A stretch of DNA of 22,738 nt from Fragilariopsis cylindrus CCMP1102 (lineage: Eukaryota > Bacillariophyta > Bacillariophyceae > Bacillariales > Bacillariaceae): contig FMBT01000207.1 of NCBI GenBank assembly GCA_900095095.1, positions 1 through 22,738 of the forward strand, in the 5' to 3' direction. Position 1 is the first letter of the stretch. Each line of letters begins with the position of its first letter. The notes under the pieces are model-generated. The model saw nothing but the letters and a program-made list of their open reading frames with translations, searched no databases and was not told the DNA's origin. Shown here piece after piece: positions 2,002 to 22,738 of the stretch. Position numbers and translations under genes: made by a program.

Positions 2002-3612
2002 TTATGACGCCCACGCAGTACCAGACTTGTTATCGAATGCACCGTTTTCTATCATGCTGTTATCATTACCATTATCATTATCATTATTTTGTTTAGGCTT
2101 GTCTCGTGCAATGTCGATCAGGGGGTGAATCTGTAGAACCTCATTAACGACTTCTTCCAATGCTGAACCACCTTTATTTCCGCCAACAACTAATGTACGT
2201 AACGTGTTTTTCCTCTTCGCCTCTTTTGTTGTTGTACTTTGCTCGTTCTCGTCGCCCAGTTGTGGGACGTTCTTAAGAGCCGCAACGACTGACACCACCC
2301 CACTTTCATTGGCCTCGTTCCCGCCAATATCCAAGTATTCTATCGAATAGTGACCACCCTGTAGGTGCTTTGAAATTTCCAAAAATCCATCATCAGTACC
2401 AAGTTGATTGCCAAATAGATTCAATATTTTCAACGACGAATCCACGCTGTTGCTACGTCGAATTAGTTCAACTGCTGCAGAAATCCCACACGAAGTATGT
2501 GATACATCTAGATCTTCCAACGTCGACATCCATTGTACATTGCATTCAATAGCATCGATCATTTTTCTGTTGAGAGGATTACCCGCCAAATTCAAAACTC
2601 GAATGTTAGAAAAATAATGATGATCAGTAGTTTTTATGTCATTGAAGGACATGTGAAGTCGATTGGCTAGATAACTTATACCCGTAGAAGAGATATCATT
2701 GAATGAAAGGTCCAATCGATGGAGGTCATCATCGTCTATTCTTTCCTTCGAAGAACGACAACATTCGTCAACAATCACCTTCATACCTTCGTCTCCGATT
2801 TTACATCTTGAGACATATAATTCCGATACCAAACAACTTTGTGTCAATAAACTCATCATATCTTTAACGTCATGTGAATTGCTAAGATCGCTGGAATTTA
2901 ATTTTAAAATAAGATTGCGGGTTGTTTTCCCAGATGAAGGTCCAGTACTGATAGGTTGCATTGCCTGAAGGAGTGTAGTACAGCTTTTGGCATCTAATAA
3001 ACATTCGGATAAATCAAGATGTGTCAAACTAGGAAAGAGGGGTAGCGATATTGATGGTATAGAATTGAAGAAGTCAAAGAAGGGACCGATTCTTTCATTT
3101 CGCGATAAATTGAGATCTTGTAGTGATTGCAACCTTGAGAAAATCTGAAGGATTGCTGCTGTTAGTCCTTTTGGTCCAATGTTTTTATAGCTCAGATCAA
3201 TGCCTTTCAGCATATAGACTACACTATCCCTGCTACTTTCTTCTATCACTTCTAATTTCGATTCAAATCCCTTGCAAATAGCACAAATACCATCATCACC
3301 CATATTAGAGTCACCAATACATAAAGTTTCGAGGACATTAGCACCAGCAGAGGAGGACGATGATGTTACTAGCGCCCTTCCTAGCGCTTCCAGAGCGACG
3401 GGATCGTCTATAATATGTCCCGATGCTTGTAATGATCGAAGGTGGGTGTTTTGTCCTGATTCCAAAATTGATGCCAAGCGAAGAAGTTCAATCGATCCGA
3501 ATGTTTTGAGAGGCAATATTACACACTCTTTTAAGTTTGGTTCATTATTTTCGACTTGATTCAGAAGCGATTCGCAGGATCTTGCCGATCCATTTTTGCC
3601 CCATGCAGACAT
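2002..3612 (-). CDS. Leucine-rich-repeat protein, RNase-inhibitor (RNI) type
   Basis: An intron-free frame of 536 residues starting MSAWGKNGSARS. Most of it is about ten LRRs of the RNI/NOD-like class with the LxxLxLxxNxI pattern. Clear units include LKGIDLSYKNIGPKGL, LQDLNLSRNERIG, LTHLDLSECLLDAKS, LYVSRCKIGDEGMKVI, LHRLDLSFNDISSTGI, IRVLNLAGNPLNRKM, LEDLDVSHTSCGISAA, LKILNLFGNQLGTDDG and IEYLDIGGNEANESGV. Repeats of 25-30 residues in this class form a curved solenoid used for protein binding. There is no signal peptide, membrane helix, NB-ARC or kinase domain, so a cytosolic or nuclear scaffold is likely. The C-terminal tail is Asn/Asp-rich low complexity. The partner cannot be told from sequence. 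The ATG is the first in the frame, and the ~480 bases upstream separate it from the helicase gene on the same strand. Confidence 0.85.
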   Translation of the reverse strand: MSAWGKNGSARSCESLLNQVENNEPNLKECVILPLKTFGSIELLRLASILESGQNTHLRSLQASGHIIDDPVALEALGRALVTSSSSSAGANVLETLCIGDSNMGDDGICAICKGFESKLEVIEESSRDSVVYMLKGIDLSYKNIGPKGLTAAILQIFSRLQSLQDLNLSRNERIGPFFDFFNSIPSISLPLFPSLTHLDLSECLLDAKSCTTLLQAMQPISTGPSSGKTTRNLILKLNSSDLSNSHDVKDMMSLLTQSCLVSELYVSRCKIGDEGMKVIVDECCRSSKERIDDDDLHRLDLSFNDISSTGISYLANRLHMSFNDIKTTDHHYFSNIRVLNLAGNPLNRKMIDAIECNVQWMSTLEDLDVSHTSCGISAAVELIRRSNSVDSSLKILNLFGNQLGTDDGFLEISKHLQGGHYSIEYLDIGGNEANESGVVSVVAALKNVPQLGDENEQSTTTKEAKRKNTLRTLVVGGNKGGSALEEVVNEVLQIHPLIDIARDKPKQNNDNDNGNDNSMIENGAFDNKSGTAWAS

Positions 3613-4091
3613 TATTTATTTGTTGTGCTTATTGATCTTTGCGTGTAGAACGGGATATATTTGTTGATTATTTAAGTGGTAGTCTCTGGTATGGAGTCCG
3701 TGCGGATGAAAGTAACGTTAGCAGCAGTTGTCGAGGATGATGAAGATGCGATATTATGATGATGATACTTTAAAAGTAGTTCAGTTGGACTTTATGTGAA
3801 GTGTGATTTGATTTTTGTAATCGAATGGCTGATGCTAGCTAAATCACAAAACACTAAGTCAGCTCCTGGTTTTGCAAATAGAAAAATAATACTGTAGGAT
3901 AAATTACAAACATACTGTAGATAGGCATCCAAAGCAGCGTCCCAAAATCATATGTACTTTAAGAACACAAAAATGTAGGTATAATCTCATGTTCTAAAGT
4001 GCTCTAGTTTAATGCGATATAGTAGCAGAACAAAATTTCTACAAAAATCGAATTTTATTTCTTAGAAACTTGAAAAGAAGCTTATAATAGA
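3613..4091. other. Intergenic region, 5' side of the LRR gene and 3' side of the helicase gene
   Basis: AT-rich DNA with no frame of note. It must hold the promoter of the minus-strand LRR gene (inference); no clear TATA box is seen. A GATGATGATGA run lies near 3730-3766. Confidence 0.5.
4054..4059 (-). terminator. Polyadenylation signal AATAAA of the nuclease-helicase gene
   Basis: The plus-strand TTTATT reads AATAAA on the minus strand, 33 bases after the stop codon of the nuclease-helicase gene. That is a normal position for a eukaryotic poly(A) signal. Confidence 0.45.
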
Positions 4092-7000
4092 TTAAAAGTT
4101 ACTAGAGTATTCTTCCTGCATTTGTTCAAGAGAACCGTTGTGTTGCTTCTGTAAGATATGGATCATTTGATCGATAGAATGTGCGTACCAATTTCTTGTA
4201 TCCACTTTCCCTGCATGACAGAACTGTTTATTCAACCAAAAAGCGGCCTCCATTTGTAAGGCCTCCTCGATAGACTCAAACAGCAGCCCGTCGCTATCGC
4301 TCTCTACTAGTTTTGGACACAAAACATTGGGTGGAACACATGCCTTTGCATCTGCAATAGTGGAAGGACGCTCACTATTTTTCTTGATCCACTTAGGCAG
4401 TTTGTTTTTTCCTCGTCCAACAACGGACATGTCACCAATAGAGTCGTTCACGAAACGGGCCTTGTATAAAGTGTCATCAGCATTCTTTTTATACCATGAA
4501 ACATCCCAATTTTCTGCATTCAATGATACTCTAAACGAACTTTTATTGTTGCTCCTTATGTTCAGAACTTGTTCTTCAAACATTTGGAAGACCAAAGCGA
4601 GAATATTGGTAGAGGGAAATGCAGGCATCGTCGCCCCGTTATTTAAAGTAGTCGAGAATAACAAATTCGACGGATTGATGAGTTGACGATCAAAATGACG
4701 GATCGCGTGGTGTTCTAGTGTCTTGCCTTTGGGAGAGTTAATTTCGGTTTTGCGATTTTTGGAACGACCAGGAGGGCTTTTTCCAGCTGGCGTAGATTTT
4801 TTGGAACGACCAGGAGTACTTTTTCTAGCTGGCGTAGAGTCCTTCTTTGGCGTAGAATATTTATTTGTTCCATCCGAAACTGAAGTACGACGCGGCCCAT
4901 TATATTCCGATTTCGTACTAGTTTTACGTTCCATACGCCACACAGATAGATTCTCCATAGTCAGCGATTCTTCCATGATCGACTCCCAAGGCGTTAAGTC
5001 CCCATCAACACCATCGAACAACGCGCATAGTTGAATAATCCTCTCGGGGAAACACGCCAGTTTTTCTCCCATAGACAGGGAATTCTGATGAAACACAGTG
5101 GCAAGGCGAAGGCGATCCAACACCCAAGCATCGGCGGATGCATTTCCACTCACACATGTTTGATCACCTCCACGAGTTTTAATCATCTTAACCTTATCCA
5201 CTAACCAAGAATATGATCTATGAACTTTCTTCTCGGTACCAACTTCCTCGCTTTGCGTTGACCACAACAGAGGGGTGTCGGGCTCTAAACCAAAGGACAA
5301 CTGCGATAGGAGAATAAATAGCGGATTGGGGGGAAGTAAGGTTAGGCCATCCACTCTTAGACCACCTTGTTGCAACTCCAAAGAGTTAGCTGCCACTGCG
5401 TAAAGGTCGTTAGTGGTGTGAATGGCCGTAGATGGTACCGATTCATCAACGTACACAAGGTTAGATGTGCCCAAACGTCTCCAACGTTTTGAAACATCTA
5501 TTTCGTCTTGGGCCATTGAAAAGTTCATAGTATCCTCAGGATCGTCGCTACCATTTTTAGGGATTCGCAGCATATACTTTCCCTTCCGCTGACTGGATGC
5601 TAGCATAGCCAATATTCTTGCACCTTCAGGAACATCTAAAAACAGAGGTTGATGCAATCCACGGCTTTCTGGTAGCTGAGACACTGTTGGTCTTTTTAAT
5701 ACAATGGATTGAGCAGAGTTTTTGACGTTCTCTGAAACGCTCAAAGGCTTTCTACCCAACAAGTCTTCCAGATCTGGTTTCGAAACCCTGCGACATTCAC
5801 CTATTGTGGTCACAAAAAAAGGCTGAACCGAATTCGATTTCTTTTTCTTTTTGCTGCTACTTCTTTGAGTGAAAAAATGCCATATCATTTTCGACTTTAA
5901 GTTGCATTGATATAGTTCGTGAATCATGGAAGAGCAGATTCTTCCAAACTCATTGCCGACTTCTTCTTGTATTAAATCAATTCGTTTAAATTGTTTTTGT
6001 CTAGCGAAATCACCCTGAGGGTTGGCATTGACTGCCCACACACCACATGCCCTTTCTTGAAGTCCACGGCGCTTTTTGTTAGTGTAATCGTATACGAAAA
6101 TCTCCTTTTTTGAGGAACAATATGTTACTGTTTCAAGAAATGTCCCCATTCCATTTGACATCTTGGTTTCCTCGAGGTATAGAAAAACTCCTTCATCAGA
6201 GTAGCATAGTATTGCTTCTATACCCTTCTCACTTGCATAAGATATTAAACGATCTTCAAAGTCAAAATCGTTGACAAAATGAGGCAGATAGAAAATCCCA
6301 TCCACTTCAAACACTCCTGTTTGATTTACCTCGTTACTTTCTATAATATTGTATGGATGTCTCTCTGACTGGAGTATGCGATCGAGATGGGTATCCTTGA
6401 GGGTTGCAGACGATTTTCCTTTGATTGAAAGCGTAACAGAATCATCATGCGAAAGTTTCAATTTTGAAGGAGCGCACTCGATTATTGAATCAGAGAAAAC
6501 CCAAACCATCAATAGCCTCAGAAAAAGCAACTTTTCACGCGGCATATCCCTTGGTGGGAGTTGCACTTGAAGTTTATCCTCATTCACTCCAAGGAAGTCG
6601 GCAACTCTCTTTCGGATGCTATTTCGAGAAGATACCGCTTGTTTCCATCGTGTCGCTGCAATTTTATTCTTGTAGCACCACGTATTTTTATTAGATGCAA
6701 TGACATAATCCCAAAGAGCATTCATCAAAGCGAGAGGCTCTGAATATAGACCAGCATCAAACTTGCATTTTGCCGCATAAGTTTGTGAAGCATTTACATT
6801 GAACTCGTCGGGAGTAAGCCACATGGGACTTGTAATTTGGAAAGGCGTTTTCGTTAATGACATCATCGCAGCCATTTCAATTGCCTCAGCAGCAACACCA
6901 AACTGAATTCCTAACCCTATGAAAGCTCCAAGTGACAAGTCAACACCCAGTGAAGATACAAAACTTCCAAGAGAAGTAATGTCTGCCTTATCATCTGCTT

Positions 7001-10000
7001 CGGTAATAAAACCCCAATGATGCAAACTTTGGAAGGACCTAGATATTGTGTCAAGTGGAGGTGGTTCAAGGCAATCCATAAATGCAGGTATCACTTCTTC
7101 ATGTAAAATCTGCTTTAGGAGCAGTATCACGCTATCTAACGGAATACGAAGCATTTCACCAGGCTCAAACTCTTCCATGTAGTTTTCATATGCTCGTCGA
7201 GTATAGAGGCGGTAGACGTTTCCTGGGCGCACTCTCCCAGTTCGACCCGCCCTTTGAGTTGCGCTCGCTCGAGAGATCCAAGCTGGGGTCAACATTTGAC
7301 GGTGAGTGGCTTGATTGTAAATAATTTGTTTGCAAAGTCCAAGACAAATCACATGGTCTACCGCGGGGAGAGTGACCGAACTCTCGGCTGCATTCGTGGC
7401 AATAATCACCTTCACTTCATCCTCTTCGGGATCGTTAAAGGCATTCATCTGTTCCTCAAATGGAATATCACCATGTATGGGAAAGCAAGTGTACCGAATA
7501 CCAGTCATATGAAAGCTTTCGATGCACTCAGTAATAGATACAATTTCACCCATCCCTGGTACAAAAATCAGTACAGACGAACCGGGCTCTCCAACTATCG
7601 TTGCCAGACGAGCTGTCAAAGCAAATCTATTTGAAATTTCGGCACTTTTAGGTGCTGTTACGCATTTCTTTGACTCGATCTCTTTCCGAATTGCTGATAC
7701 GGCCTTAGTTTCTTGACTGGGTAATCCAAACTGTGACAGGTCTTCGATAAAGTATTCCGTGATAGGAAATGTACGTACACCCACATGGATTGGCTCATTG
7801 ATAACACTGAAATAATCCCGATACATCTTTGTAGCGAGTGTCGCTGACATTAATACCAACCGAATTGTCTTGTTGGTTTGGAGCAATCTCCTACTCAATA
7901 AACACAAGAGGTCAGTGTCCACTGACCGCTCATGAACTTCGTCTATCACTAAATGAGTCATTTCATTGAATTTTTCTGGATGGTTTGCTAGTAGACGTAC
8001 AAGATAGCCAGTAGTTACGAAGGACACTTGCGTCTCTTTGCTCTCGTATTCCTTCCATCCACCGCCCATTCTAAGGGAAAACTTGTCCTTGAGGTCTGGT
8101 TCGCAAGAACGCACCCTTTCAACCAAGGCTTTAGCAGCAATCCGTCGTGGCTGTGATATGAAGAATTTGACCTTTCGCAAGCTTCCGTCCGGAGGTGGCG
8201 ATTTTAGAAGCATAACGGGTACACGGGAAGACTTCCCGCATCTGAACAGCGTACGAAAAAAAGTGTGCAATCGCAATTTTTGAGTTTTCCCATAATTATA
8301 CTTACTGCTTGAATGGATACAAACAATCAAACAATCAAACAAACAAACGTAATAGAAGATAATCGCAATCACAAACACGCATGCACGTACCCTGTTTCTC
8401 CATGAATAATTGTTACACGATTGTTCCGAATGTCGTCAAGAATTTCCGTTTCATGGTCATCAATAGGTAATCTTCTAACTGCTTCCACTTTCTCAGGTGT
8501 CCTTTCTTCTGCTGGACTCTTCCGTGTATCCACTTTTTCTGTTACATTTTCTCGTAACGAAGCGATGGCGGAGAAGAAATCAATGCGGTTCAAAAGTGCA
8601 TCCGGTGGCGTTGCCTTAATCAATAAGGAATTTGATGATGTTCTATAAAAGCGGCTGATACATCTTTCGATAAAGGAGGCAAGTTCCATATCTTGATACG
8701 TCGGCCTATATAGCAAAGTCGGTAAGTTTTTCATCGGCATACTGGAAATTTTGTAAGCATGCAATTCATCCGATGTAAACAAAGAATTAGAATCTGCATC
8801 TGTCTGATCTAAATTTGTCTCTAGATACCGTATCAATCCATCTCGTACAGACATATCTTGAGGCAAAAGTCTTGCTTCGGTAGAGTTCTTCATCGGGATA
8901 TTATTTTTATTCGTGATTGGTTGGCTGGTTTCTAGGGGAAATTCTTCCAGGTTATAAAAGTTATACAAGCTTCGAACAAACTTTACTGCAGCTTTCCCCT
9001 CTTCGTTCTTGGCGATTACTTCAAAGTCTTCATGACACTGCAATAAAAAACTATAGATTGGACATTGTCCAGTTCGATCTCGTCGGGTAAATCTAATGAA
9101 AGTGAGTCGACATAATCATTACCCATCAATAAAGCTAAGTCCACCAGTCTCGAATCATTATCAAATCCAAGCAAGTTAGCAAGATCAGATCTTCTAGCAA
9201 TAAATGCATGTATTCCCGATGTTTGAATGGATATTTGATTCAAAGGAATATAATTGATATCTTTGTAAAAGAAAAAATCTGAATCAAGACCGCATATGAA
9301 TGTATGCTCTTTTCCCCTTGCCTCTAACGCCAATTCTAAATCAGCTTCTTCGGTACATTCGACCATGTCAACAATAGGATTTTGTACATCCTCCTGTAGA
9401 GCATGACGCACGCACGTTAGAACAATTTCGAAAATGGAAAATCATCTTTCAATTCGCAGATATGTTTGCTCTTTCTATTGTTTTTTTTGAACTTTTTTAT
9501 TGATCCATGTTTGCAAAACATTTCTAGGTTAGACTCTTGTTCCTTTCGAAATGCTCTTCGTTTAAGGTCTGTTCCAGCTTTGTGACGCCGCATTGTTCCA
9601 TCCCAAAATACTTTGATTTGTTTAATACTATCGTCAGAATTTTTCAATTCACTAACAAATTCTTTCGTCACTTCACGTAACAAACGAAGGGGTAGCACAC
9701 AAGGTAACGCCTTCACAATTAATTGTTGATCACTCATTACAGTACGACTGAGAGGACAACAGTCACTGCTGCTGCTGCTGTTGTTGTTGTGTGTGCCATT
9801 AGTTGACGTATCAAGTGAACGCAAATATCGAGCGTAGGCAATAGAATGCAAGTAAAATGCTAAACCATTTCCGTCGATCAAAAAGGTTGAATGCTGTGGT
9901 ATCTTTTCGAGCGAAGGAGAATCATCTTTGCCCAAGAATGCATCGGAGCATTCACTTTCTTCCAGATACTTGTAGAGCATCCGCAATTGGAAGTTCCTGA

Positions 10001-10089
10001 TCATTCGTGTCATCTTCACTACTTGATGATGATGATGATGCTAACCAACCGACATCACGCAGCAAATGTCGAATTCCACGTACACCCAT
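4092..10089 (-). CDS. FEN/Asteroid-like PIN nuclease fused to a DExH (DEVH) RNA helicase
   Basis: Proposed exons are 10089-9970, 9893-9112, 9037-8391 and 8241-4092, giving about 1,899 residues if one frame break near 9441-9417 is ignored. The start MGVRGIRHLL is the Met-Gly N-terminus typical of XPG/FEN and Asteroid proteins. Nuclease acidic positions follow: LIDGNG (~47), FWDG (~138), ECTEEAD (~219), GLDSDF (~244-246), LMGNDY (~300). The same exon then runs into a superfamily 2 helicase: GETGCGKSS (motif I, split by an intron, ~514), SQPRRIAA (Ia), DEVH (II, ~617), SAT (III, ~649), FVPGMGEI (IV), TNAAESSVTLP (V) and QRAGRTGR (VI, ~846), followed by the winged-helix/ratchet and OB-like regions of the DHX29/36/57 (RHA) group. 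A basic STP-rich linker lies at ~1640-1680. By family the helicase should unwind RNA or RNP; the nuclease half may cut flaps or RNA, or only bind. The joint action is inference. Confidence 0.8.
4753..4836. repeat. 42-bp tandem repeat coding the STP/PGRSKK linker
   Basis: Two imperfect copies, anchored by GGAACGACCA at 4761 and 4803 (period 42), lie inside the helicase C-terminal region. Each encodes a 14-residue Ser-Thr-Pro-Lys-Arg-rich unit. Flanking bases encode further degenerate STP units. Confidence 0.7.
8242..8390 (-). other. Intron 3 of the nuclease-helicase gene
   Basis: A 149-base GT-AG intron, donor GTACGT and acceptor TGTTCAG, phase 2. It splits the Walker A motif exactly, joining IIHGETG to CGKSSRVP to give GETGCGKSS. 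Inside it are AAAC/AATC repeats (8321-8348). Confidence 0.9.
9038..9111 (-). other. Probable intron 2 of the nuclease-helicase gene (donor uncertain)
   Basis: The acceptor TTATTGCAG (9038-9046) is clear, with phase 0 before CHEDFEVIAK. Two donors keep the frame: GTCGAC at 9111, giving 74 bases and ending the exon at LMGNDY, or GTCCAA at 9063, giving 26 bases and keeping VDSLSLDLPDEIELDN. The 74-base version matches the size of intron 1. Neither donor is a strong consensus. Confidence 0.55.
9417..9441 (-). other. Unexplained frame break in the nuclease domain
   Basis: Upstream coding reads ...KDDFPFSKLF then stops at 9417-9419. The continuing family-like sequence (FEIVLTCVRHALQ, then ECTEEAD) lies in the frame that re-reads one base. 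That frame is closed by a TGA at 9442-9444, so the switch must fall between about 9441 and 9417. No GT-AG pair with matching phase exists, because no upstream phase-0 GT is available for the CTACAG acceptor at 9395-9400. One missing base, for example in the TTTT run, would explain it. Confidence 0.55.
9894..9969 (-). other. Intron 1 of the nuclease-helicase gene
   Basis: A 76-base GT-AG intron, donor GTATCT and acceptor ACCACAG, phase 0. Removing it joins ...IADALQ to HSTFLIDGNG, which puts the conserved nuclease aspartate in frame with the MGVRG start. Reading through instead hits a stop after LQVSGRK. Confidence 0.8.
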
Positions 10090-11815
10090 CAAAAAAAACG
10101 TAGCGAAATTCCTTCCCCAAACGAAAAAAGTATCGAGCAACTACGAGACACCAAACTTTATGATGTGGTTTTATTACCTTTAATTCGTTCTATTAGAATA
10201 ATAATGGTGAGTTTCGTCAACAACACCACTTTGCTCAGCAGTGATTGTGCTTACAAGTAGGTTTTTGTGTGACGCAGATGAAGAGAGGAACGGCAATGTT
10301 TGCATCATCGTACGGTGTAGTTTTTAAAAAATGAAGATTTCAAATAGAGCGTGACTTCTCCCTGAAAAAGCTGTCCGTCCGTCAACCTACCAATGGGAAA
10401 AAGAAACAACAACCAATCATCAATATCATACTGTATCATCATCATTAAGATTGTTTGTTTCGAAATTCTGTAGAAAAAGGGAAAGCTGAATTAAAAAGCA
10501 TCAGTTTTAAATGAAGGAGAGCACATATGTCATGTATACATTAAGAGTGTCATTATTGAAGGCAACAGAGAGATGCAGGTATTATTATTCAAGAAATAAT
10601 ACATCATCTTTGCTTGATGATGACAACATCCTAAAATGGGGAGTAAGAAATGAGTCAATGAGGATGCCATGCAGTACAAGTAGATTTGCATGTCTTGATG
10701 TCTGACACTATTTAGGTAGTTAGATACATATTTTTACATGCTGTGTTTGATGGTAATGTCAAGGATGTAACAGTTGTTGGTATTGATATTTGGTTATATA
10801 TTACACAGGAGAACCAACCTAGACAGGATCCAACCCAGTTTACTGCTGATGCTTCTACACTGGTACAGGAAGCTTAAACCAGATATTGTAATAATAAACA
10901 GTTATGTATATCATTGTCATTGCTAGTGAAGTAGCACAAATTCCAGCAAAGCAATAAGCGCTGTTGCACATATCTGCTAGATGGACTATCTTCTTCACTA
11001 TCTTCTGCTAACTAAGGTAGTCTTTTTGATTGTCACTCTCCTGTCACTTCAAATAGACAACTCAGACGATAGCTCTTTCTACACAGACAAATGGGGGGAA
11101 CCAGATACATTCAACATGGGTATAGTACTTAGTAATAGAACAAGCCAACAAAAATCTACTGGATCAAGATCGCTAACTTCATGGACCATAATACAAGGCA
11201 TATTTGTACTTTATGCCGAATGGATCGATTGCGAAGATTCTCTGAAATTTACGATGTTGAGTGACTGTTGGGAAAATTGTAGACTTCCTTCCTTATCAAC
11301 TCACGAGAAACGAGCACAGTGACACGTATTGATGATAATGAAAAAGATCCAACGGAAACTACAGCAGCTTACCGAAGAAAGCTAACCTGTACAACAATTG
11401 CGGCTCTTTTTAATACGAGACGACTCGAAAATTTCTACCGATGACGATAATGAAAGAAGGTATAATATATACGATCATTTAGTTATCGTTCTATTTGCTA
11501 AATATGTGTATACAATGTAATATTAATCAAGATCTATTCGTATGGTAAGACTGCTTTGCTCGTCGAACTTTTCGTGAAATTCACTCTATTTTATTTATTT
11601 TAACGACTACAATTTCGATCTTATTGTGGTCTTGCAGCGTATAAGTGTGTACACGGAGTGCCAGAATAAATATTTCGTTGCCGTTTGTCCAATTCCATGG
11701 GATGCATTTTATCTTTCTTCAATATTCATTCGGATATGAATTTTTTCGATTCTCGATCCTTTTTACTATCTTGAGTTGGTCATTCGTTGATAGGGATAAC
11801 TCCCTTGCTTTGCTT
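10090..11815. other. Spacer with a CpG-free relic, no confident gene
   Basis: This separates the 5' end of the nuclease-helicase gene from the 3' end of the basic protein gene, both on minus. It holds the CpG-free relic at 10463-10958, listed separately. The rest is AT-rich. A 113-residue plus frame at 10981-11322 has no recognisable domain and I do not call it. Confidence 0.55.
10463..10958 (+). pseudogene. CpG-free relic of a repeat or mobile element
   Basis: There is no CG dinucleotide in these 496 bases, although flanking DNA has them at ordinary spacing. Within it, a plus-strand frame of about 57 codons (about 10711-10878) reads coding-like sequence (for example VFDGNVKDVTVVGIDIWLYI) and ends at a TAA. 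Another frame at 10511-10705 starts MKESTYVMYTLRVSL. Neither matches a family I know. The base signature matches the decayed element at the right end of the window, so I infer an old methylated insertion. No terminal repeats or target duplication were found. Confidence 0.4.
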
Positions 11816-12553
11816 CTATAACAAACGGCGGGCTTTAATATCACTACCCAACAAGTGACTATCTCCGAAACCACTTCGACGTGTCGTAGTCGAACGTTGG
11901 TTTGGGTTTTTGTTTATAGAAAACGAAGAAGAAGAACCTGGAGGAGGAAGAGGAGGACGGTACTGGTAATGGTGTAATGGGGTAGTGGGCAAATACGACA
12001 CAGGTGTAAACTCGAGAGCCTTTGCCATGATGGGAGATTTGCAGGGAGATTCCTTAGACATACGGACCTCGGTCTTGTACGATAGATACATAGTTCCGGT
12101 ACTATTGACTTGTCGTTCGAGTCGGCGGCGTTGGTGCTCGATATTTTGCTTGGCAGCCGTCGATAGCAGAGCAGGAGACGACTGCGCTGAAGCCGACGCC
12201 ACCGACGACAAGAATAATGCTGATCCGACACTTGAATTCGAATTTGATTGCAGTCCCATCGTTGATAAGGATTTTAATGCCGATGACGATGACGACAGCA
12301 ATAACAAGTCAGAAAGTGACGGTGAAGGATCGGGACGACGTGACTTGTTGTGTTCCTTGTTGTCCTCTACTGATGATGACGAGGGTGAGTTGGAAGAAGA
12401 GGTTCGACGTTTCTTGTTCTTTTTCGTCTTTTCAGTTTCTTCGTTATTTTGACTATCGGCGTATGCGATCTTCTTGATTTTACTTGCAGCAATAGTTGCT
12501 GCTCGTCGCTTCGTACGACGGATTGCCGGTGCGGCGTTGGAAGAATTTGTCAT
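11816..12553 (-). CDS. Basic, Ser/Pro-rich protein, probably nuclear; unknown function
   Basis: The first ATG of the frame (12551-12553) gives 245 residues. The frame stays open upstream only through a non-ATG, Phe/Val-rich stretch, so I choose the ATG. The N-terminus is strongly basic (RRTKRRAATIAASKIKK, then KTKKNKKRR), which resembles bipartite nuclear-localisation signals. A long Ser/Asp low-complexity centre follows. The most protein-like part is the C-terminal third: QNIEHQRRRLERQVNSTG, MYLSYKTEVRMSKES and CKSPIMAKALEFTPVSYLP, then a Pro-rich, Tyr-containing tail ending FGDSHLLGSDIKARRLL. I do not recognise a domain. Several S-P sites suggest phosphorylation (inference). The ORF is intron-free. 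Confidence 0.6.
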   Translation of the reverse strand: MTNSSNAAPAIRRTKRRAATIAASKIKKIAYADSQNNEETEKTKKNKKRRTSSSNSPSSSSVEDNKEHNKSRRPDPSPSLSDLLLLSSSSSALKSLSTMGLQSNSNSSVGSALFLSSVASASAQSSPALLSTAAKQNIEHQRRRLERQVNSTGTMYLSYKTEVRMSKESPCKSPIMAKALEFTPVSYLPTTPLHHYQYRPPLPPPGSSSSFSINKNPNQRSTTTRRSGFGDSHLLGSDIKARRLL

Positions 12554-13086
12554 GGCGACTGCGACGACGAAGAAGAAAAAGAAGAGGAAGAGGGAGAGCG
12601 AAGTAGATACTGATACGACACGACACGACAATGGAACACTTCACAACTCTAATTCAGAGGAAAATGTTCATGTGAGTGTTGTGTTGTGTTTAGTTTCTGA
12701 GAGAGAATGAAATCTTAATTAGCATAGGCGTTAAAGTGATAGTTCAAAAGAAGAGGAAGAAGTAACGACATCGGACGAGATGACGAGATTGATTGCCTTT
12801 ATATTTTTGAATTCTTTGCATCGCGATCGAAAAAATAAATCTGTGACTGAGATTTCGCGCGTAGGCAGTACTGCTGCTATTTGGCCTATGGACTCCTGTA
12901 CTAAGTACAGTAAGGGCATAGAATGGGAGTGCGTATAATTTAATTTGGGTTGATTCATTCGAGAGGAAGTGACATGCTGTAAAATTCAGATGAGGTTAAA
13001 AAGTACAAGAACACAACAATCATGTACATTGTGGTGGGTAAAGTTGTATTGCATTTGATCTTCTTTATCTACGAGACTAACATCCT

Positions 13087-17786: not shown

Positions 17787-19349
17787 CTATTCCAAACACG
17801 GATCTATCTTCCATTCTTCAACCATACTTACGAACATGTCGATATTGGATACAACCACACGACCGCGATTCGATGGTCGCAACAAATAGTCAATAATCCA
17901 TTTGGAAGCATTACGGGAGGTTTCTAATAGTATTTCTCTTAGTGGCTCGTACCGTTCGAGACAAATATCTAATATCTGACCTTTCCTATCTTCAGGATAA
18001 TCGTAAACCGTTTTGGGTCTCTCACCATTCCGATGTGGGGCCCTTGGAAGATCACCAACGTCCAGTCCCAAAAAAGTCTCGAGGTCGGTTACCACATCAT
18101 CTGCCATAGTCTGATTCTTCCGATTGTCGAACTGTCCGATTTCAATCAAAAATAGTTTCGCTTTGTCAACATCACCATCACCATCACTATCAACACTATC
18201 ATCACCTTTCGAAGAAAAGTCATGAATCGGCATAGTGTGGTGGTCTAATAGGGCCAACTCTTCTGGAGTGTCCATCGGAGTTAATCCCAATCGAGACAGG
18301 TACATGTGATAATTTGATTCACCCGTACAAAAATTAATATCGACATCACTCACACCCACACAGCGTTGATGGTCTGCTCTTGTTGTCACCTTCTTCGTCA
18401 CTACTTTTTTGGCGTTCAATTTGGACACTCTAGAAGCATCTTTCGTCGTCGATAATAAGAACGATCGAAAGTCGTCTTCATTGTCGAAAGTCTTTTTCAC
18501 TTGCTCTGTGGCTACTGTGGAGACTATAGCTGAAGTCTCCCTTCTCTCATCATTATTATTGTCATTATCATTATCATTATCCTCGGGACAAAGCTCCCCA
18601 CAGACACCGATAAAGTTCTCAACAGTTGGAATCAAGGAGGGGTGTTTTCTGAGCTTGTAATTGTACAAACTTTCGAATTGCAGTACTGGGTGTCTCAAGG
18701 TAATGATAATGCCGACGTCTGGAAATAATGTCTCAAGGTTCCGTAACGATGTTTCGTGACCGAGTTCGAATGGGGCCTTGTATCCAACCACCATTATTTC
18801 TTTTTGTCCACTATTGCTATCATCATCATCATCATCATCTACATTTGTATCACTATAATTCGCTTCGTCGACGATCATTGATGATGACTTCTTTGTCACA
18901 TTATCAAATTCGGCCACGAATTCAGAATATTTATCACTTTGCAGGAAGTGTGTTTCGTGGTGAGGAATAAAAAGTCTTTCCGATGGATATAATATTTTAT
19001 TCTGTAAATAAGTAGTTCCGCATTTTGGAAATCCCCCTACCACGAAATCAATCAAGTGTGGATCAATACTTTCTTGTACATCGATCGGTACTTCGCCAAC
19101 CTCTCTAGGTAGTATGGATGATAGGTCGCGAGTAGTAGATTTTGATTTTGATTTTGGCCACGTTCTTGATCGTATTTTTGTTGTGTTACTGTTACTGTTA
19201 CTGTTACCGAAGTTCGACGATGATGATGGGACATCATCGTTTCTGTTCCCCCCACCCGTAATCAGATTCAGAGTGGTCGAAACCACTGCTGCGAATGTTA
19301 AAAACGCGATACTAATTATTGCTACTTCTTGCTTTGATATCGTCATCAT
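17787..19349 (-). CDS. Type II membrane sulfotransferase, PAPS-dependent
   Basis: A single-exon protein of 520 residues. I start at the first ATG (19347-19349, MMTISKQEV); the frame extends upstream only from a GTG. Residues ~10-32 form one hydrophobic anchor (AIISIAFLTFAAVVSTTLNLI), then an Asn/Ser-rich stem, so a Golgi type II topology is likely. The 5'-phosphosulfate loop is FVVGGFPKCGTTYLQ (PKCGT at 108-112), and the 3'-phosphate motif is ITLRHPVLQFESLYNYK (RHP at 219-221, Ser 227). Enzymes of this fold move sulfate from PAPS to hydroxyls of sugars or to other acceptors; the acceptor here cannot be told. Asp- and Asn-rich insertions (~170-180, ~260-275, and an SDGDGDVDK stretch) are low-complexity spacers in loops. 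The C-terminal region YPEDRKGQILDICLERYEPL resembles the end of the family domain. It is convergent with the membrane protein gene. Confidence 0.85.
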   Translation of the reverse strand: MMTISKQEVAIISIAFLTFAAVVSTTLNLITGGGNRNDDVPSSSSNFGNSNSNSNTTKIRSRTWPKSKSKSTTRDLSSILPREVGEVPIDVQESIDPHLIDFVVGGFPKCGTTYLQNKILYPSERLFIPHHETHFLQSDKYSEFVAEFDNVTKKSSSMIVDEANYSDTNVDDDDDDDSNSGQKEIMVVGYKAPFELGHETSLRNLETLFPDVGIIITLRHPVLQFESLYNYKLRKHPSLIPTVENFIGVCGELCPEDNDNDNDNNNDERRETSAIVSTVATEQVKKTFDNEDDFRSFLLSTTKDASRVSKLNAKKVVTKKVTTRADHQRCVGVSDVDINFCTGESNYHMYLSRLGLTPMDTPEELALLDHHTMPIHDFSSKGDDSVDSDGDGDVDKAKLFLIEIGQFDNRKNQTMADDVVTDLETFLGLDVGDLPRAPHRNGERPKTVYDYPEDRKGQILDICLERYEPLREILLETSRNASKWIIDYLLRPSNRGRVVVSNIDMFVSMVEEWKIDPCLE

Positions 19350-19818
19350 ATTACAGTATGGAAGATGTACAAGTACAACAATGTAAAACTGAAGCTGTGA
19401 ATAATGAAATGGAAAAAAGAATGTCAAGCAAATATCAATACGAGGTGTAAATAACTCACACACGGAGTGAATTTTTTCTCTTTTTCCTCCTCGTTGTGGC
19501 CAAAAAAGTGTTAATGAGATGCCTGCTTTCGCGCAAAACGATCTCTACGTTGTAAGCATGGATATTTACAAAGAAAAATGAGTCGTCAACGGCAAACCAA
19601 TCGGAAGATGACGTTATTACGACTAAATGCCATAAACAACAAAAAACAGCTTTTTAGTCCAGCATAACCATAAAATTAATAATACAGTACTACGCGCGTC
19701 ACAAACTGGGAATTCCCAGTTTAATTTTTTTCAAAATAATAGCGCAAATCTACTCACAAAAATAAAGCCAAAACAAAGAAAATACAAATGAATTACCATG
19801 AAATGATGAAATAATGTA
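19350..19818. other. Upstream region of the sulfotransferase gene
   Basis: No gene seen. It contains a perfect palindrome at 19703-19722 and lies between the sulfotransferase start and the ~200-bp repeat array. Confidence 0.55.
19703..19722. promoter_or_regulatory. Perfect 20-bp palindrome
   Basis: AAACTGGGAATTCCCAGTTT is its own reverse complement over all 20 bases. It lies 354 bases upstream of the sulfotransferase ATG and about 100 bases before the repeat array. It could be a binding site for a dimeric factor, or part of an insertion scar; the role is inference. Confidence 0.4.
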
Positions 19819-20314
19819 GATTGACAGCAAATCATCAATTTTCAATCTTAGAAGACAATAGAGATATGTACATGCATGTATCTTCAATGAAGAACGCAGC
19901 CGTGCTGTTCATAGAGTCAACGTCCTACTACAAGGGGGTGTCGTCGCGCGAACCAATAGGTAATGGTCATCATACTTTTGCAGAAATTAATTCAATAAAG
20001 TTTCAATCCAGAAATTTTCAGATTGATAGCAAATTATCAATTTTCAACCTTAGAAGACAATAGAGATATGTACATGCATGTATCTTCAATGAAGAACGCA
20101 GCCGTGCTGTTCATAGAGTCAACGTCCTACTACAAGGGGGTGTCGTCGCGCGAACCAACACAAATGCTGAAGGTGGAATTTTTTCAATAAAGTTTCAGTC
20201 CAGAAATTTTCAGATTGATAGCAAAACATCAATTTCAATCTTAGAAGACAATAGAGATATGTACATGCATGTATATTCAATGACAAGTGCAGGACTGTTG
20301 ATTATAGAGCCATT
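19819..20314. repeat. Three direct copies of a ~200-bp repeat
   Basis: Copies start at GATTGACAGC (19819), GATTGATAGC (20021) and GATTGATAGC (20213), so the spacings are 202 and 192. The core of about 108 bases from TTAGAAGACAATAGAG to GCGCGAACCA is identical in copies 1 and 2 (19849-19957 and 20051-20158). Copy 3 keeps the first part, including TACATGCATGTA, but diverges after about 20275. The linker TTCAATAAAGTTTCA..CCAGAAATTTTCA recurs before copies 2 and 3. Copies 1 and 2 are rich in CpG; copy 3 has none. Confidence 0.9.
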
Positions 20315-20326
20315 TATATCATTTAT

Positions 20327-22699
20327 TCACCCAAAATATCTCAACTCCCACTCTCCTGTTGGGTTTTGAGTAGTGTTAGCTCCTGGAGCAATAGCAAGTG
20401 CATATGCCAGCTCAAACAAGAAAGTGAGATGTTTATATTTTCTATTCTCTAAGCAATCTTTATTTGAACTTCTCCATGTCAACTTCATCAGCATATCTTC
20501 TTCTTCTTTGTTCCATTCAAACAAAGCTAGTACCTCATCCCTCTTTGATCTTAACATTCCTAAACCACAGAGCTGTTGCAAATCATCATATGTTCCCTTC
20601 CTACCATCAACCTTATCAGCTACACTTACATCAGGATAATCTAGTGCCTGTTGTCTTTGTTGAGAAATAGGTCCATCCAGCTTTGAATACTTCTTATGAC
20701 CCTCCTCACCCCTCACTACAATGATAGAATCTGAGGCACCTGCTCTATGAGGTTCTGACCTATTCCTATCCTTGTTTACATAACTACCATCAGCTTTTTT
20801 AGTTCACCAAGTAGTTCTAAGAATGTACCATCCTTGTGTTCTGATAAACATTCATCAGCTGTTCTATACTCCAGACCACAGCATATATGGCCAGAAAGAC
20901 CACAGAGAAGAGCAATTTGTGGAAGTTTGGTTTTGAAAGATTCCCAATGCCAATGAATACCAACTTGCAAATCTGGTCTGGTATCTGGGACTCTACTAGA
21001 TAAAAAAATTTGGAAGTCTTGACAATAACATCTTCCCAAACATTCTGCACTTCAAATTGAAAGGAACCATATCAACAACCAATGAATCAACCAGATCTTT
21101 TTGGTTGATAGATAGAATTGCCTTTTCTGCCTGTAGACACCATTCTTTGGTAGCAGAAACTTGGGTAGACAGAATGATCCACCAATGAAAAGAAGTGTAG
21201 GTTCCTGTATGTAACCAATTGTGGGAACTTCAATTGGATTGAGATCTGAAGGAATTTCTCCAATGATATCTTGTGCTGCCACCTCCTTCACCAACTGTAT
21301 CAAGTACTTTCCTTTTGTTTTTGAACAGAACATATCTGCCAAGACCTTCTCTGGAGTTCCTTTAGTTGGGCATATCCATTTCTCCAGCAACTTTTTTCTG
21401 GACCCTCACTCTAACAAAGCATTCTAGTTGGGCTGAATTGAGTTTAGCAATGGTAGTAAGTGGAATATCTGCAACAGCTGCTGGAATGGAAGTGGTAGGT
21501 AGGTTTGCTTTTTCTAACAATAAACTTGTACATGCAACATTCCTTTCAAGGATTGCTCTGGCTTGTGAAACTTTTTGGGATCTTATTCTTCTGTGATTGT
21601 TCAACTCCTTTACCATCCCAGCAGTTTTGGCTTGAAGACATCTGTCAGAAATAATAGGTTGGGCTCTACCTAACACAACAGACTTGCTAGTGAGTGGATA
21701 TAGATTTCCTTTACAATCAACATCAATTCCAAACCCAACTTGATTATATACTTCTTCAGATATACCATCACTACTCAGATACATTTCATGTGTACATCTT
21801 AGTACACTATCCAAAAACAACTTCTTCAATGTAGGTTTGGATGAAAATGGAACATTGCTTGCCTTCATTACTCCTAATATATTAGGACATGCATCAACTT
21901 CATTAATGAAACCTGTATCAATGTAAGACTTCTTGATTGATTTTTCTGAATAAGCTTTACCTTTTACCTCTGGAGAAGTAGCACCACAGTCAATGATGGC
22001 ATGAAGTTTCTTTGGAGTAAGGATGAGTCTACCAGTATCTTTCAGGTCCTTCATTCCATTCTCCAATCTCTTCCTGAGAGGGGAATCAGTTCCCTTGGTT
22101 GTGCTTTGTCTTGATTGATATCTGATGATCTTGAAGAATTCACCAACATTCATTGGTTGATAACACATTGTTGTCTTGGCGCCAATCTTGTTGAATAGTA
22201 GACCCAGTTTGTAGTTTCTTTGCATGACAACATAGTCCACTAGTCTTGCTATCTGCTGCATGTCAGAGTCCACATGAATTCTAGCAAAGACATCCTCATG
22301 TAGTGAACCATCATAGTCAACAGGTATATGACCATATTCAGCCAGCAAACTTCATCCTGCTGGTAAGTTCTTTGGCAGATCATAGTGTCCAGGAATGAAA
22401 TGAGACACAAGTAGGGTTGCAATTTGTGACATACAATTGCGGACAGAAGATCCTGCCATCTGTCTCCTAACACCTTGTGGTCTTGCTCCACCAGCCTTGA
22501 CCAATGATATACCATCTTGCCTACCAAGCACAATATTATACTTCTTGATAGTAGCCCGGCATGGAGTGGAGGGCATGGTATGTCCTCTAGCTTGGTGTAA
22601 CTCCATAATACTCTTGGTGAGGTCATTTGTTGTTTCAATTTTGCCTGAGTTGTTCAAGACTCCATTGTTTAGACTTGTTAGATCAGATGTTGTTACCAT
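20327..22699 (-). pseudogene. Decayed coding element in CpG-free DNA, family not recognised
   Basis: One long protein can be followed from 22699 down to the stop at 20327, but in pieces. Part 1 (22699-22352, start MVTTSDLTSLNNG) ends at a TGA; the same frame goes on at 22348-21362 (AEYGHIPVDYDGS...). The frame then changes at the AAAAAA run near 21390 (VQKK to LLEKWICPTKG), again near 21160 (CLPK to VSATKEWCLQAEKA), and again at or near the T run at 21001-21008. Further pieces read SSRVPDTRPDLQVGIHW (21039-20776 frame) and KKYSKLDGPISQQRQQALDY to GEWELRYFG (20716-20327). Together this is about 750-800 residues. I see no reverse transcriptase, integrase, DDE or helicase motif. The nonsense and frame breaks, the missing CpG and the adjacent repeats suggest a transposon or a repeat-family gene. 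The left end of its coding strand may lie outside the window. Confidence 0.6.
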
Positions 22700-22738
22700 T
22701 GGGGGTCTCCCTTCTACAAGACCCTCATCACAATGTCA

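What the first reader, a model, noticed from the sequence alone, without database searches (positions are those of the whole stretch)
4092..10089. FEN/Asteroid-type nuclease fused to a DExH RNA helicase in one gene
The exon 9037-8391 carries the end of the nuclease region and runs without a stop into the helicase N-terminus up to GETG, and the next splice site completes GETGCGKSS. The two domains are therefore on one transcript, not two neighbouring genes. Asteroid-like PIN proteins and DHX29/36/57-like helicases are normally separate proteins as far as I know. The fusion keeps most nuclease acids (IDG, WDG, DSD, GND) and all helicase motifs. It could couple unwinding with cutting or with RNP binding in RNA decay, translation control or R-loop removal.
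Basis: partly seen in the sequence, partly recalled or inferred. Interest (0 to 1): 0.75.

Follow-up and report, generated by a model that had tools for sequence, protein, structure and literature searches.

The report
Ancient nuclease–RNA helicase fusion protein
A diatom gene encodes one protein that joins a flap-nuclease-type cutter of nucleic acids to an RNA-unwinding motor, and the same joined protein, with its cutting site almost unchanged, turns up in other algae and in water moulds, so it looks like an old, working enzyme for which I found no description.

Summary
The fusion is real. A FEN/XPG-superfamily nuclease (Asteroid-like, PF12813) runs into a DExH helicase through one open exon to GETG; a 149-base GT–AG intron (8390–8242) completes GETGCGKSS. 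Three are absent from the other assembly copy (99.57% identical). One, near 9420, is in both copies and stays unexplained.

It is no local accident. Of 108 proteins from three searches, 93 carry the nuclease domain, 89–92 of them with each helicase motif; named sources include diatoms, a pelagophyte, chrysophytes and oomycetes. Of the 93, 84 keep all seven FEN-type acids, 7 are truncated without mismatch, 2 deviate. Helicase cores of 37 fusions, plus 4 proteins in which no nuclease was detected, form one clade (100/99), apart from 12 of the diatom's other helicases. Nuclease and helicase distances correlate (r = 0.84).

Best explanation: an ATP-driven helicase feeding single strands to an N-terminal metal-dependent nuclease, on RNA or RNA–DNA hybrids. 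Activity and substrate are untested. Nine literature searches listed no description.

The parts
8391..10089 (-). Exon 1: Met-Gly start, FEN/XPG (Asteroid-like) nuclease, linker, helicase N-terminus up to GETG
   Evidence: judged one exon from the second copy L009 and from relatives, apart from the shared break near 9420
9859..9884 (-). Nuclease motif IDGNGL (FEN1 D34 position)
9577..9608 (-). Nuclease motif FWDGTMRRHK (FEN1 D86 and K93 positions)
9328..9351 (-). Nuclease motif EEADLELA (FEN1 E158 and E160 positions, the second one D)
9265..9285 (-). Nuclease motif DSDFFFY (FEN1 D179 and D181 positions)
9106..9123 (-). Nuclease motif GNDY (FEN1 D233 position)
9936..10005 (-). Two reading-frame breaks (about 9998 and 9947) in this contig, absent in copy L009
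9407..9428 (-). Reading-frame break present in both assembly copies; shared sequencing error or a real defect, unresolved
9037..9046 (-).
8470..9105 (-). Linker between nuclease and helicase, without Pfam match
   Evidence: frame 8369-9115, 0 families; boundaries approximate
8242..8390 (-). Intron, 149 bases, GT...AG, between GETG and CGKSS
4092..8241 (-). Exon 2: helicase from motif I onwards, C-terminal region, stop
6680..8470 (-). DExH helicase core (motif I GETGCGKS across the intron; DEVHER 7943-7926; SAT 7850-7834; QRAGRTGR 7256-7230)
   Evidence: fold of relative P0022; boundaries approximate
4095..6680 (-). C-terminal region without Pfam family; only a weak structural likeness to Spindle-E
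   Evidence: boundary approximate

Best explanation
It is a single-chain nuclease-helicase that most likely arose before the oomycete-ochrophyte split within stramenopiles. Shown: a FEN/XPG-superfamily domain at the very N-terminus and a DExH (DEAH/RHA-type) helicase are encoded in one chain; both active sites are kept together across distant lineages; the two halves have diverged in parallel. Inferred: the helicase moves 3'-5' on RNA (recalled for family members) and opens structured RNA or an RNA-DNA hybrid; the freed 5' single strand is threaded into the metal-dependent FEN-type site and cut. The invariant Met1-Gly2 end, part of the FEN active site (recalled), would explain why the nuclease sits at the N-terminus. 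This would be a one-chain counterpart of mammalian SAN1 (FAM120B), a FEN-type 5' exonuclease that binds the RNA/DNA helicase senataxin. I judge the fusion itself about 0.97 certain; the mechanism is the uncertain part, and the score below is for the mechanism.
For: Continuity: one frame from EEAD/DSD/GND to GETG in copy L009; the intron joins GETG to CGKSS.
Breadth: 58 hits, 36 of them covering over 90% of residues 1-560 of the model, all 58 with Pfam helicase domains. Of 41 hits from an oomycete-type query, 34 have PF00867, PF00270 and PF00271 in one protein and 37 have PF00867 with at least one helicase domain.
Catalysis: of 93 proteins with the nuclease domain, 84 have all seven acids, 7 are truncated without mismatch, 2 deviate; the most conserved columns are those positions with Met1, Gly2 and the K and R of the FEN site. 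The profile matches FEN1 chains from residue 1, best E 2.2e-15.
Common history: helicase clade 100/99; Mantel r 0.837, 0 of 2000 permutations as high, 37 fusions.
Precedent: SAN1 (PMC6030175, abstract and section 6 part 1).
Against: No activity, transcript or substrate was measured. A GxG soon after the last aspartate, as in the FEN1 helix-hairpin-helix (recalled), was found in only 1 of 93 by a simple pattern, so the substrate grip probably differs from FEN1. Pfam's HA2 and OB families, usual in DEAH helicases (recalled), were not matched in the window. One frame break near 9420 is in both copies of this gene and may be real. Six of 58 proteins show no nuclease domain at the cut-off: by eye P0037 and P0054 start after the last nuclease motif; P0046, P0053, P0057 and P0058 lack it or are cut gene models. 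On the helicase tree the label 'fusion' needs 4 changes because those four lie inside. SAN1 was found specific for single-stranded DNA, not RNA.
Confidence: 0.55

Rival explanations
1. The fusion is a DNA-repair enzyme: the helicase acts on DNA or R-loops and the nuclease trims 5' DNA ends or flaps, like SAN1 with senataxin. (Overlaps with the best explanation where the substrate is an R-loop; the scores are not exclusive.)
For: SAN1 is a FEN-type 5' exonuclease on ssDNA, binds the R-loop helicase senataxin and is needed for cross-link resistance (PMC6030175, abstract and section 6 part 1). ASTE1 and FAM120B are reported to have nuclease activity and act in DNA repair (PMC12345631, passages). 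FEN1 is the closest solved relative of the nuclease.
Against: The helicase's best solved relatives are DHX29, Spindle-E, DHX9 and DHX36, mostly RNA enzymes (recalled). The diatom has separate FEN/XPG-family genes. The GxG of the FEN double-strand grip was not seen in 92 of 93.
Confidence: 0.27
2. The nuclease domain is a non-cutting RNA-protein platform, as Mkt1-type XPG-family proteins may be, and the helicase does the work.
For: Mkt1, an XPG-family protein, works in gene expression with Pbp1 (PMC12345631, passages) and in RNAi-linked post-transcriptional silencing (PMC7026591, abstract).
Against: The seven acids, the two basic residues and Met1-Gly2 are the most conserved columns, against a median top-residue frequency of 0.42; a platform would not need them.
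Confidence: 0.12
3. In this particular diatom the gene is decaying or frame-broken, although the family is functional.
For: Four frame breaks in the window copy, one of them in both copies.
Against: Three breaks are copy-specific, and the other copy has two of its own in the helicase (about 7998 and 8026) where the window is open. Between the copies the coding part shows five single-base gaps and two substitutions, which fits read errors. The helicase frame is open over 1447 codons.
Confidence: 0.1
4. Artefact: two neighbouring genes joined by gene prediction.
For: Predicted proteins alone can join neighbours, and most relatives here are predictions.
Against: The junction lies inside one open exon in the DNA. 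The same order recurs from diatoms to oomycetes and in two MMETSP-labelled peptides.
Confidence: 0.02

Closest known systems
SAN1/FAM120B with senataxin (mammals)
   Same: FEN-type nuclease with seven acids at the N-terminus, binding an RNA/DNA helicase (PMC6030175, abstract and section 6 part 1)
   Different: Two separate proteins; senataxin is an SF1 helicase (recalled), not DExH; SAN1 was found specific for single-stranded DNA
Asteroid/ASTE1 (PF12813), Mkt1 and FAM120 class
   Same: XPG_I_2 match above cut-off in the window protein
   Different: No helicase domain in those proteins (recalled; not searched here)
FEN1/EXO1/XPG nucleases
   Same: FEN1 aligns from Met1 to the last catalytic aspartate; all seven acids and the K93 and R100 positions kept (numbering recalled)
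   Different: No GxG after the last aspartate in 92 of 93; fused to a helicase
DHX29, Spindle-E/TDRD9, DHX36, DHX9 helicases
   Same: Best solved relatives of the helicase core
PhoH2 (bacterial PIN domain plus RNA helicase)
   Same: One chain couples a PIN-type RNase to an RNA helicase (passage and cited titles in PMC7824862; the PhoH2 papers themselves were not read)
   Different: Other nuclease and helicase families; described from bacteria and phages

Membership tests
FEN/XPG nuclease superfamily | Seven catalytic carboxylates in order | tested here: met
   Window model: all seven; of 93 proteins with the domain 84 have all seven, 7 are truncated without mismatch, 2 deviate
FEN/XPG nuclease superfamily | Sequence profile match to solved members | tested here: met
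   FEN1, best E 2.2e-15, profile 1-252 to FEN1 1-244; EXO1, GEN1, RAD2 and XPG chains also matched
FEN/XPG nuclease superfamily | Helix-hairpin-helix (GxG) after the last aspartate | tested here: inconclusive
   Pattern found in 1 of 93; only a simple pattern was used
Asteroid-like (PF12813 XPG_I_2) | Match above curated cut-off | tested here: met
   Window 26.1 bits vs 24.2. Among deep members weaker: 4 of 7 match PF12813 and 6 of 7 PF00867 at E<=0.1; 4 of 10 and 2 of 10 at E<=0.01
Asteroid-like (PF12813 XPG_I_2) | Asteroid-type C-terminal half | not tested
   No Asteroid protein was aligned beyond the Pfam model
DExH (DEAH/RHA) helicase, SF2 | Motifs I, II (DExH), III, VI | tested here: met
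   Window all four; 89, 91, 92 and 89 of 93 proteins
DExH (DEAH/RHA) helicase, SF2 | DEAH-type fold including the part after RecA2 | tested here: met
DExH (DEAH/RHA) helicase, SF2 | Pfam HA2 and OB families after the core | tested here: inconclusive
   Not matched in the window at E<=1; the fold match of P0022 runs on past RecA2
Spindle-E/TDRD9 | Extended Tudor domain | tested here: inconclusive
Single-chain nuclease-helicase | Both domains encoded in one chain | tested here: met
   by sequence, no protein was measured
Single-chain nuclease-helicase | Coupled unwinding and cutting | not testable with these tools
   Needs biochemistry

The most novel reading that the evidence does not exclude
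A stramenopile-wide enzyme class that joins a FEN-type nuclease and a DExH helicase in one chain and clears RNA-DNA hybrids or structured RNA by unwinding and cutting in one pass: a cis version of the SAN1-senataxin pair, evolved once, and kept from oomycetes to diatoms with a nearly invariant active site.
Probability: 0.35. Interest if true: 0.8.

Novelty: new variant of a known kind. Interest (0 to 1): 0.62.

Why it matters
Nuclease–helicase chains are known, but nine searches of open-licence papers listed no description of a FEN/XPG-superfamily nuclease joined to a DExH helicase. Where a source names a function for the retrieved proteins it names one half ('HrpA-like RNA helicase', '5'-3' exonuclease', 'spindle-E', 'HA2'), although precomputed Pfam domains show both halves in many. 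A fusion points to joint function: it suggests that free-standing Asteroid/FAM120/Mkt1-type nucleases elsewhere may work with DHX helicases, which can be tested. It is also a candidate shared trait of stramenopiles and a model for coupled RNA unwinding and cleavage.

Tried and rejected
Splice-site readings of the frame changes in exon 1 (including 9037): dropped, because copy L009 and, by eye, the relatives read through those places. An intron at about 9420: dropped, because TCVRHALQ there is kept in relatives.

Fold searches with the C-terminal region: no Foldseek match with E<=0.001; VIA rows weak. The shown rows for relative P0022 align to its helicase part (one search shows no ranges), so the nuclease fold was barely tested; no FEN-named row is among the 50 shown in either.

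NCBIfam: HrpA, HrpB and archaeal FEN models match only below their curated cut-offs. Viral contigs: 179 stretches matched a pattern, none confirmed as a relative. The alignment search with A1 gave 12 proteins; 2 were already known fusions, 1 (P0059) a new one, and in the other 9 no nuclease domain was found at the cut-off.

Literature: of the nine listings two were empty, three complete (1 of 1; 66: 1 of 1; 75: 9 of 9) and four cut (15 of 212; 39: 15 of 26; 64: 8 of 112; 65: 10 of 42). No listed title or abstract start describes this fusion. Only open-licence PMC papers are held, so this is weak evidence of absence.

Limits of counts: the first and third protein searches took words from, and scored, the N-terminal part, and all took only proteins near the query's length, so free-standing nucleases were excluded and nuclease-less helicase orthologues are under-sampled; only the best 7989 and 7984 candidates were scored. 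In the tree, 2 of 14 own-genome helicase pieces were dropped as too short, and P0066, P0059 and L020 have long branches; 36 of the 93 nuclease-bearing proteins and the window model were used.
Full report
OBSERVATION. On the minus strand an ATG at 10089 opens MGVRGIRHLL and a stop at 4092 ends the frame. The window contig breaks the nuclease frame at about 9998, 9947, 9420 and 9042. The assembly holds a second copy, G000:C44 (L009), 99.57% identical over 9913 aligned columns with 20 mismatches and 21 gap openings. In L009 the breaks at 9998, 9947 and 9042 are absent, whereas two other breaks (about 7998 and 8026) interrupt its helicase where the window is open. Between the copies the coding part of the gene shows five single-base gaps and two substitutions. 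That fits read errors in two haplotype copies better than two real alleles. Other gene families of this genome also appear as contig pairs. The break near 9420 is in both copies and is unexplained.

JUNCTION. In L009 one open frame of 357 codons contains EEAD, DSDF, GNDY, the linker and LPIDDHE...IIHGETG. The intron 8390–8242 (149 bases, GT...AG) joins GETG to CGKSSRVPV. So the end of the nuclease and the start of the helicase share an exon.

DOMAINS. Pfam: XPG_I_2 (PF12813) 26.1 bits against a cut-off of 24.2; DEAD and Helicase_C in the long frame; no family in the linker frame and none in the C-terminal region. A search of this genome for PF12813 found only the two copies of this gene (six frames, exon by exon, only the best candidates scored). 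Separate XPG-family matches exist: eight for PF00867, most in pairs of contigs, none of them in this gene, and seven for PF00752. By sequence the window helicase is nearest to DHX9-, DHX29- and Spindle-E-type chains, then DHX36 and others; the family profile is best with DHX29 and Spindle-E.

BREADTH. The first protein search (words and scoring from residues 1–560, proteins near the model's length) gave 58 hits, all with Pfam helicase domains; 36 cover over 90% of those residues. Organisms named are Nitzschia inconspicua, Nitzschia sp., Seminavis robusta, Cylindrotheca closterium, Epithemia clementina, a Bacillariaceae sp. (P0037, no nuclease part), Chaetoceros tenuissimus, Aureococcus anophagefferens and 'GSChrysophyteH1'. 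There are also MMETSP-labelled peptides of Stauroneis constricta (P0032) and Paraphysomonas imperforata (P0043, Chrysophyceae), and a model labelled Psemu1, which I recall as Pseudo-nitzschia multiseries. A query with P0056 gave 41 hits. Those that name an organism are all oomycetes by recall (Phytophthora, Nothophytophthora, Globisporangium, Pythium, Peronospora, Hyaloperonospora, Peronosclerospora, Bremia, Plasmopara, Lagenidium); 34 of 41 carry PF00867, PF00270 and PF00271, and 37 carry PF00867 with at least one of the two. The second search (alignment A1) gave 12 proteins and one new fusion, P0059.

CATALYTIC SITE. I built a profile from seven deep members and aligned all 108 different proteins of the three searches. 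93 have the nuclease domain at E<1e-3: 52 of 58, 1 of 10 new ones, 40 of 40 new ones (total). Of the 93, 84 have all seven acids, 7 are truncated without mismatch, and 2 (P0059, P0108) deviate. Among 252 columns filled in at least 60 proteins, ten are at least 98% identical where filled: Met1, Gly2 and the positions of D34, E158, A159, E160 (here D), D179, D181, D233 and R100. Those of K93 and D86 follow at 97.8%. The median top-residue frequency is 0.42. The correspondences rest on the FEN1 alignment; the FEN1 numbering and the roles of K93, R100 and Gly2 are recalled. This is what selection for cutting looks like, though it is not a measurement. Helicase motifs by pattern in the same 93: I 89, II 91, III 92, VI 89.

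HISTORY. In a maximum-likelihood tree of 56 helicase cores, 37 fusions (the window among them) and 4 proteins without a detected nuclease form one clade (100/99), apart from 12 own-genome helicases and a plant DExH6. Seven oomycete-type rows (some unnamed) are a supported subclade (100/100). The label 'fusion' needs 4 changes on this tree because P0046, P0053, P0057 and P0058 lie inside, so loss or cut gene models are likelier than a primitive state. In the nuclease tree (quick method, 37 rows, 4 of them in no group) the oomycete-like group (support 99) and the diatom-like group (88) are each one side of a branch; the chrysophyte-like group needs two changes. I set those groups from the helicase tree and the few named members, so the trees are compared, not tested against outside taxonomy. 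Nuclease and helicase distances correlate at r 0.837 (0 of 2000 permutations as high); mean identity is 0.29 in the nuclease and 0.45 in the helicase. One origin before the oomycete–ochrophyte split fits best. Sampling is limited to what the searches returned, and relatives outside stramenopiles were not sampled systematically.

MECHANISM. Inferred: DExH helicases of this type move 3'–5' on RNA, and FEN-type nucleases cut near free 5' ends (both recalled). A helicase opening a duplex would expose a 5' strand for the attached nuclease. The missing GxG (found in 1 of 93) suggests that the duplex grip of FEN1 is replaced, perhaps by the helicase. SAN1 is a FEN-type 5' exonuclease on single-stranded DNA that binds senataxin, an R-loop helicase (PMC6030175, abstract and section 6 part 1). 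Mkt1, ASTE1 and FAM120 proteins have been proposed as one class, with reported roles from stress granules to DNA repair (PMC12345631, passages). [quoted passage not shown]).

VERDICT. The fusion is real and conserved and very probably catalytic; the substrate is unknown. It is a new domain combination of a known kind of enzyme (single-chain nuclease–helicase). Whether this strain's own copy is intact depends on the break near 9420.

Noticed in passing
window 2850-12751 versus L009 (G000:C44): This stretch duplicates another contig at 99.57% identity with about as many gap openings as mismatches; single-base gaps break reading frames in both copies, so frames in this assembly need care.
   Followed up: partly
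window 9407-9428 and the matching place in L009: A frame break shared by both assembly copies in an otherwise conserved stretch; cause unknown.
   Followed up: partly
window 2002-3615, minus strand: Frame of 537 aa (stop to stop) with leucine-rich repeats, downstream of the fusion gene (LRR_6 E 4.4e-17).
   Followed up: no
window 17787-19544, minus strand: Long frame with a sulfotransferase match below the curated cut-off (E 0.0046).
   Followed up: no
window 19815-20370: Three overlapping plus-strand frames repeat a peptide beginning LEDNRDMYMHV, suggesting imperfect tandem repeats.
   Followed up: no
window 20327-22735, minus strand: A chain of broken frames that may be a decayed mobile element; five of the frames were scanned and gave no Pfam match at E<=0.01.
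   Followed up: partly
P0046, P0053: Helicases inside the fusion clade with about 240 residues before motif I and no nuclease domain: possible loss of the nuclease, or cut gene models.
   Followed up: no
P0059: A very divergent fusion (nuclease hit 71.6 bits, one acid changed) of unnamed source; it might extend the architecture beyond the named groups.
   Followed up: no
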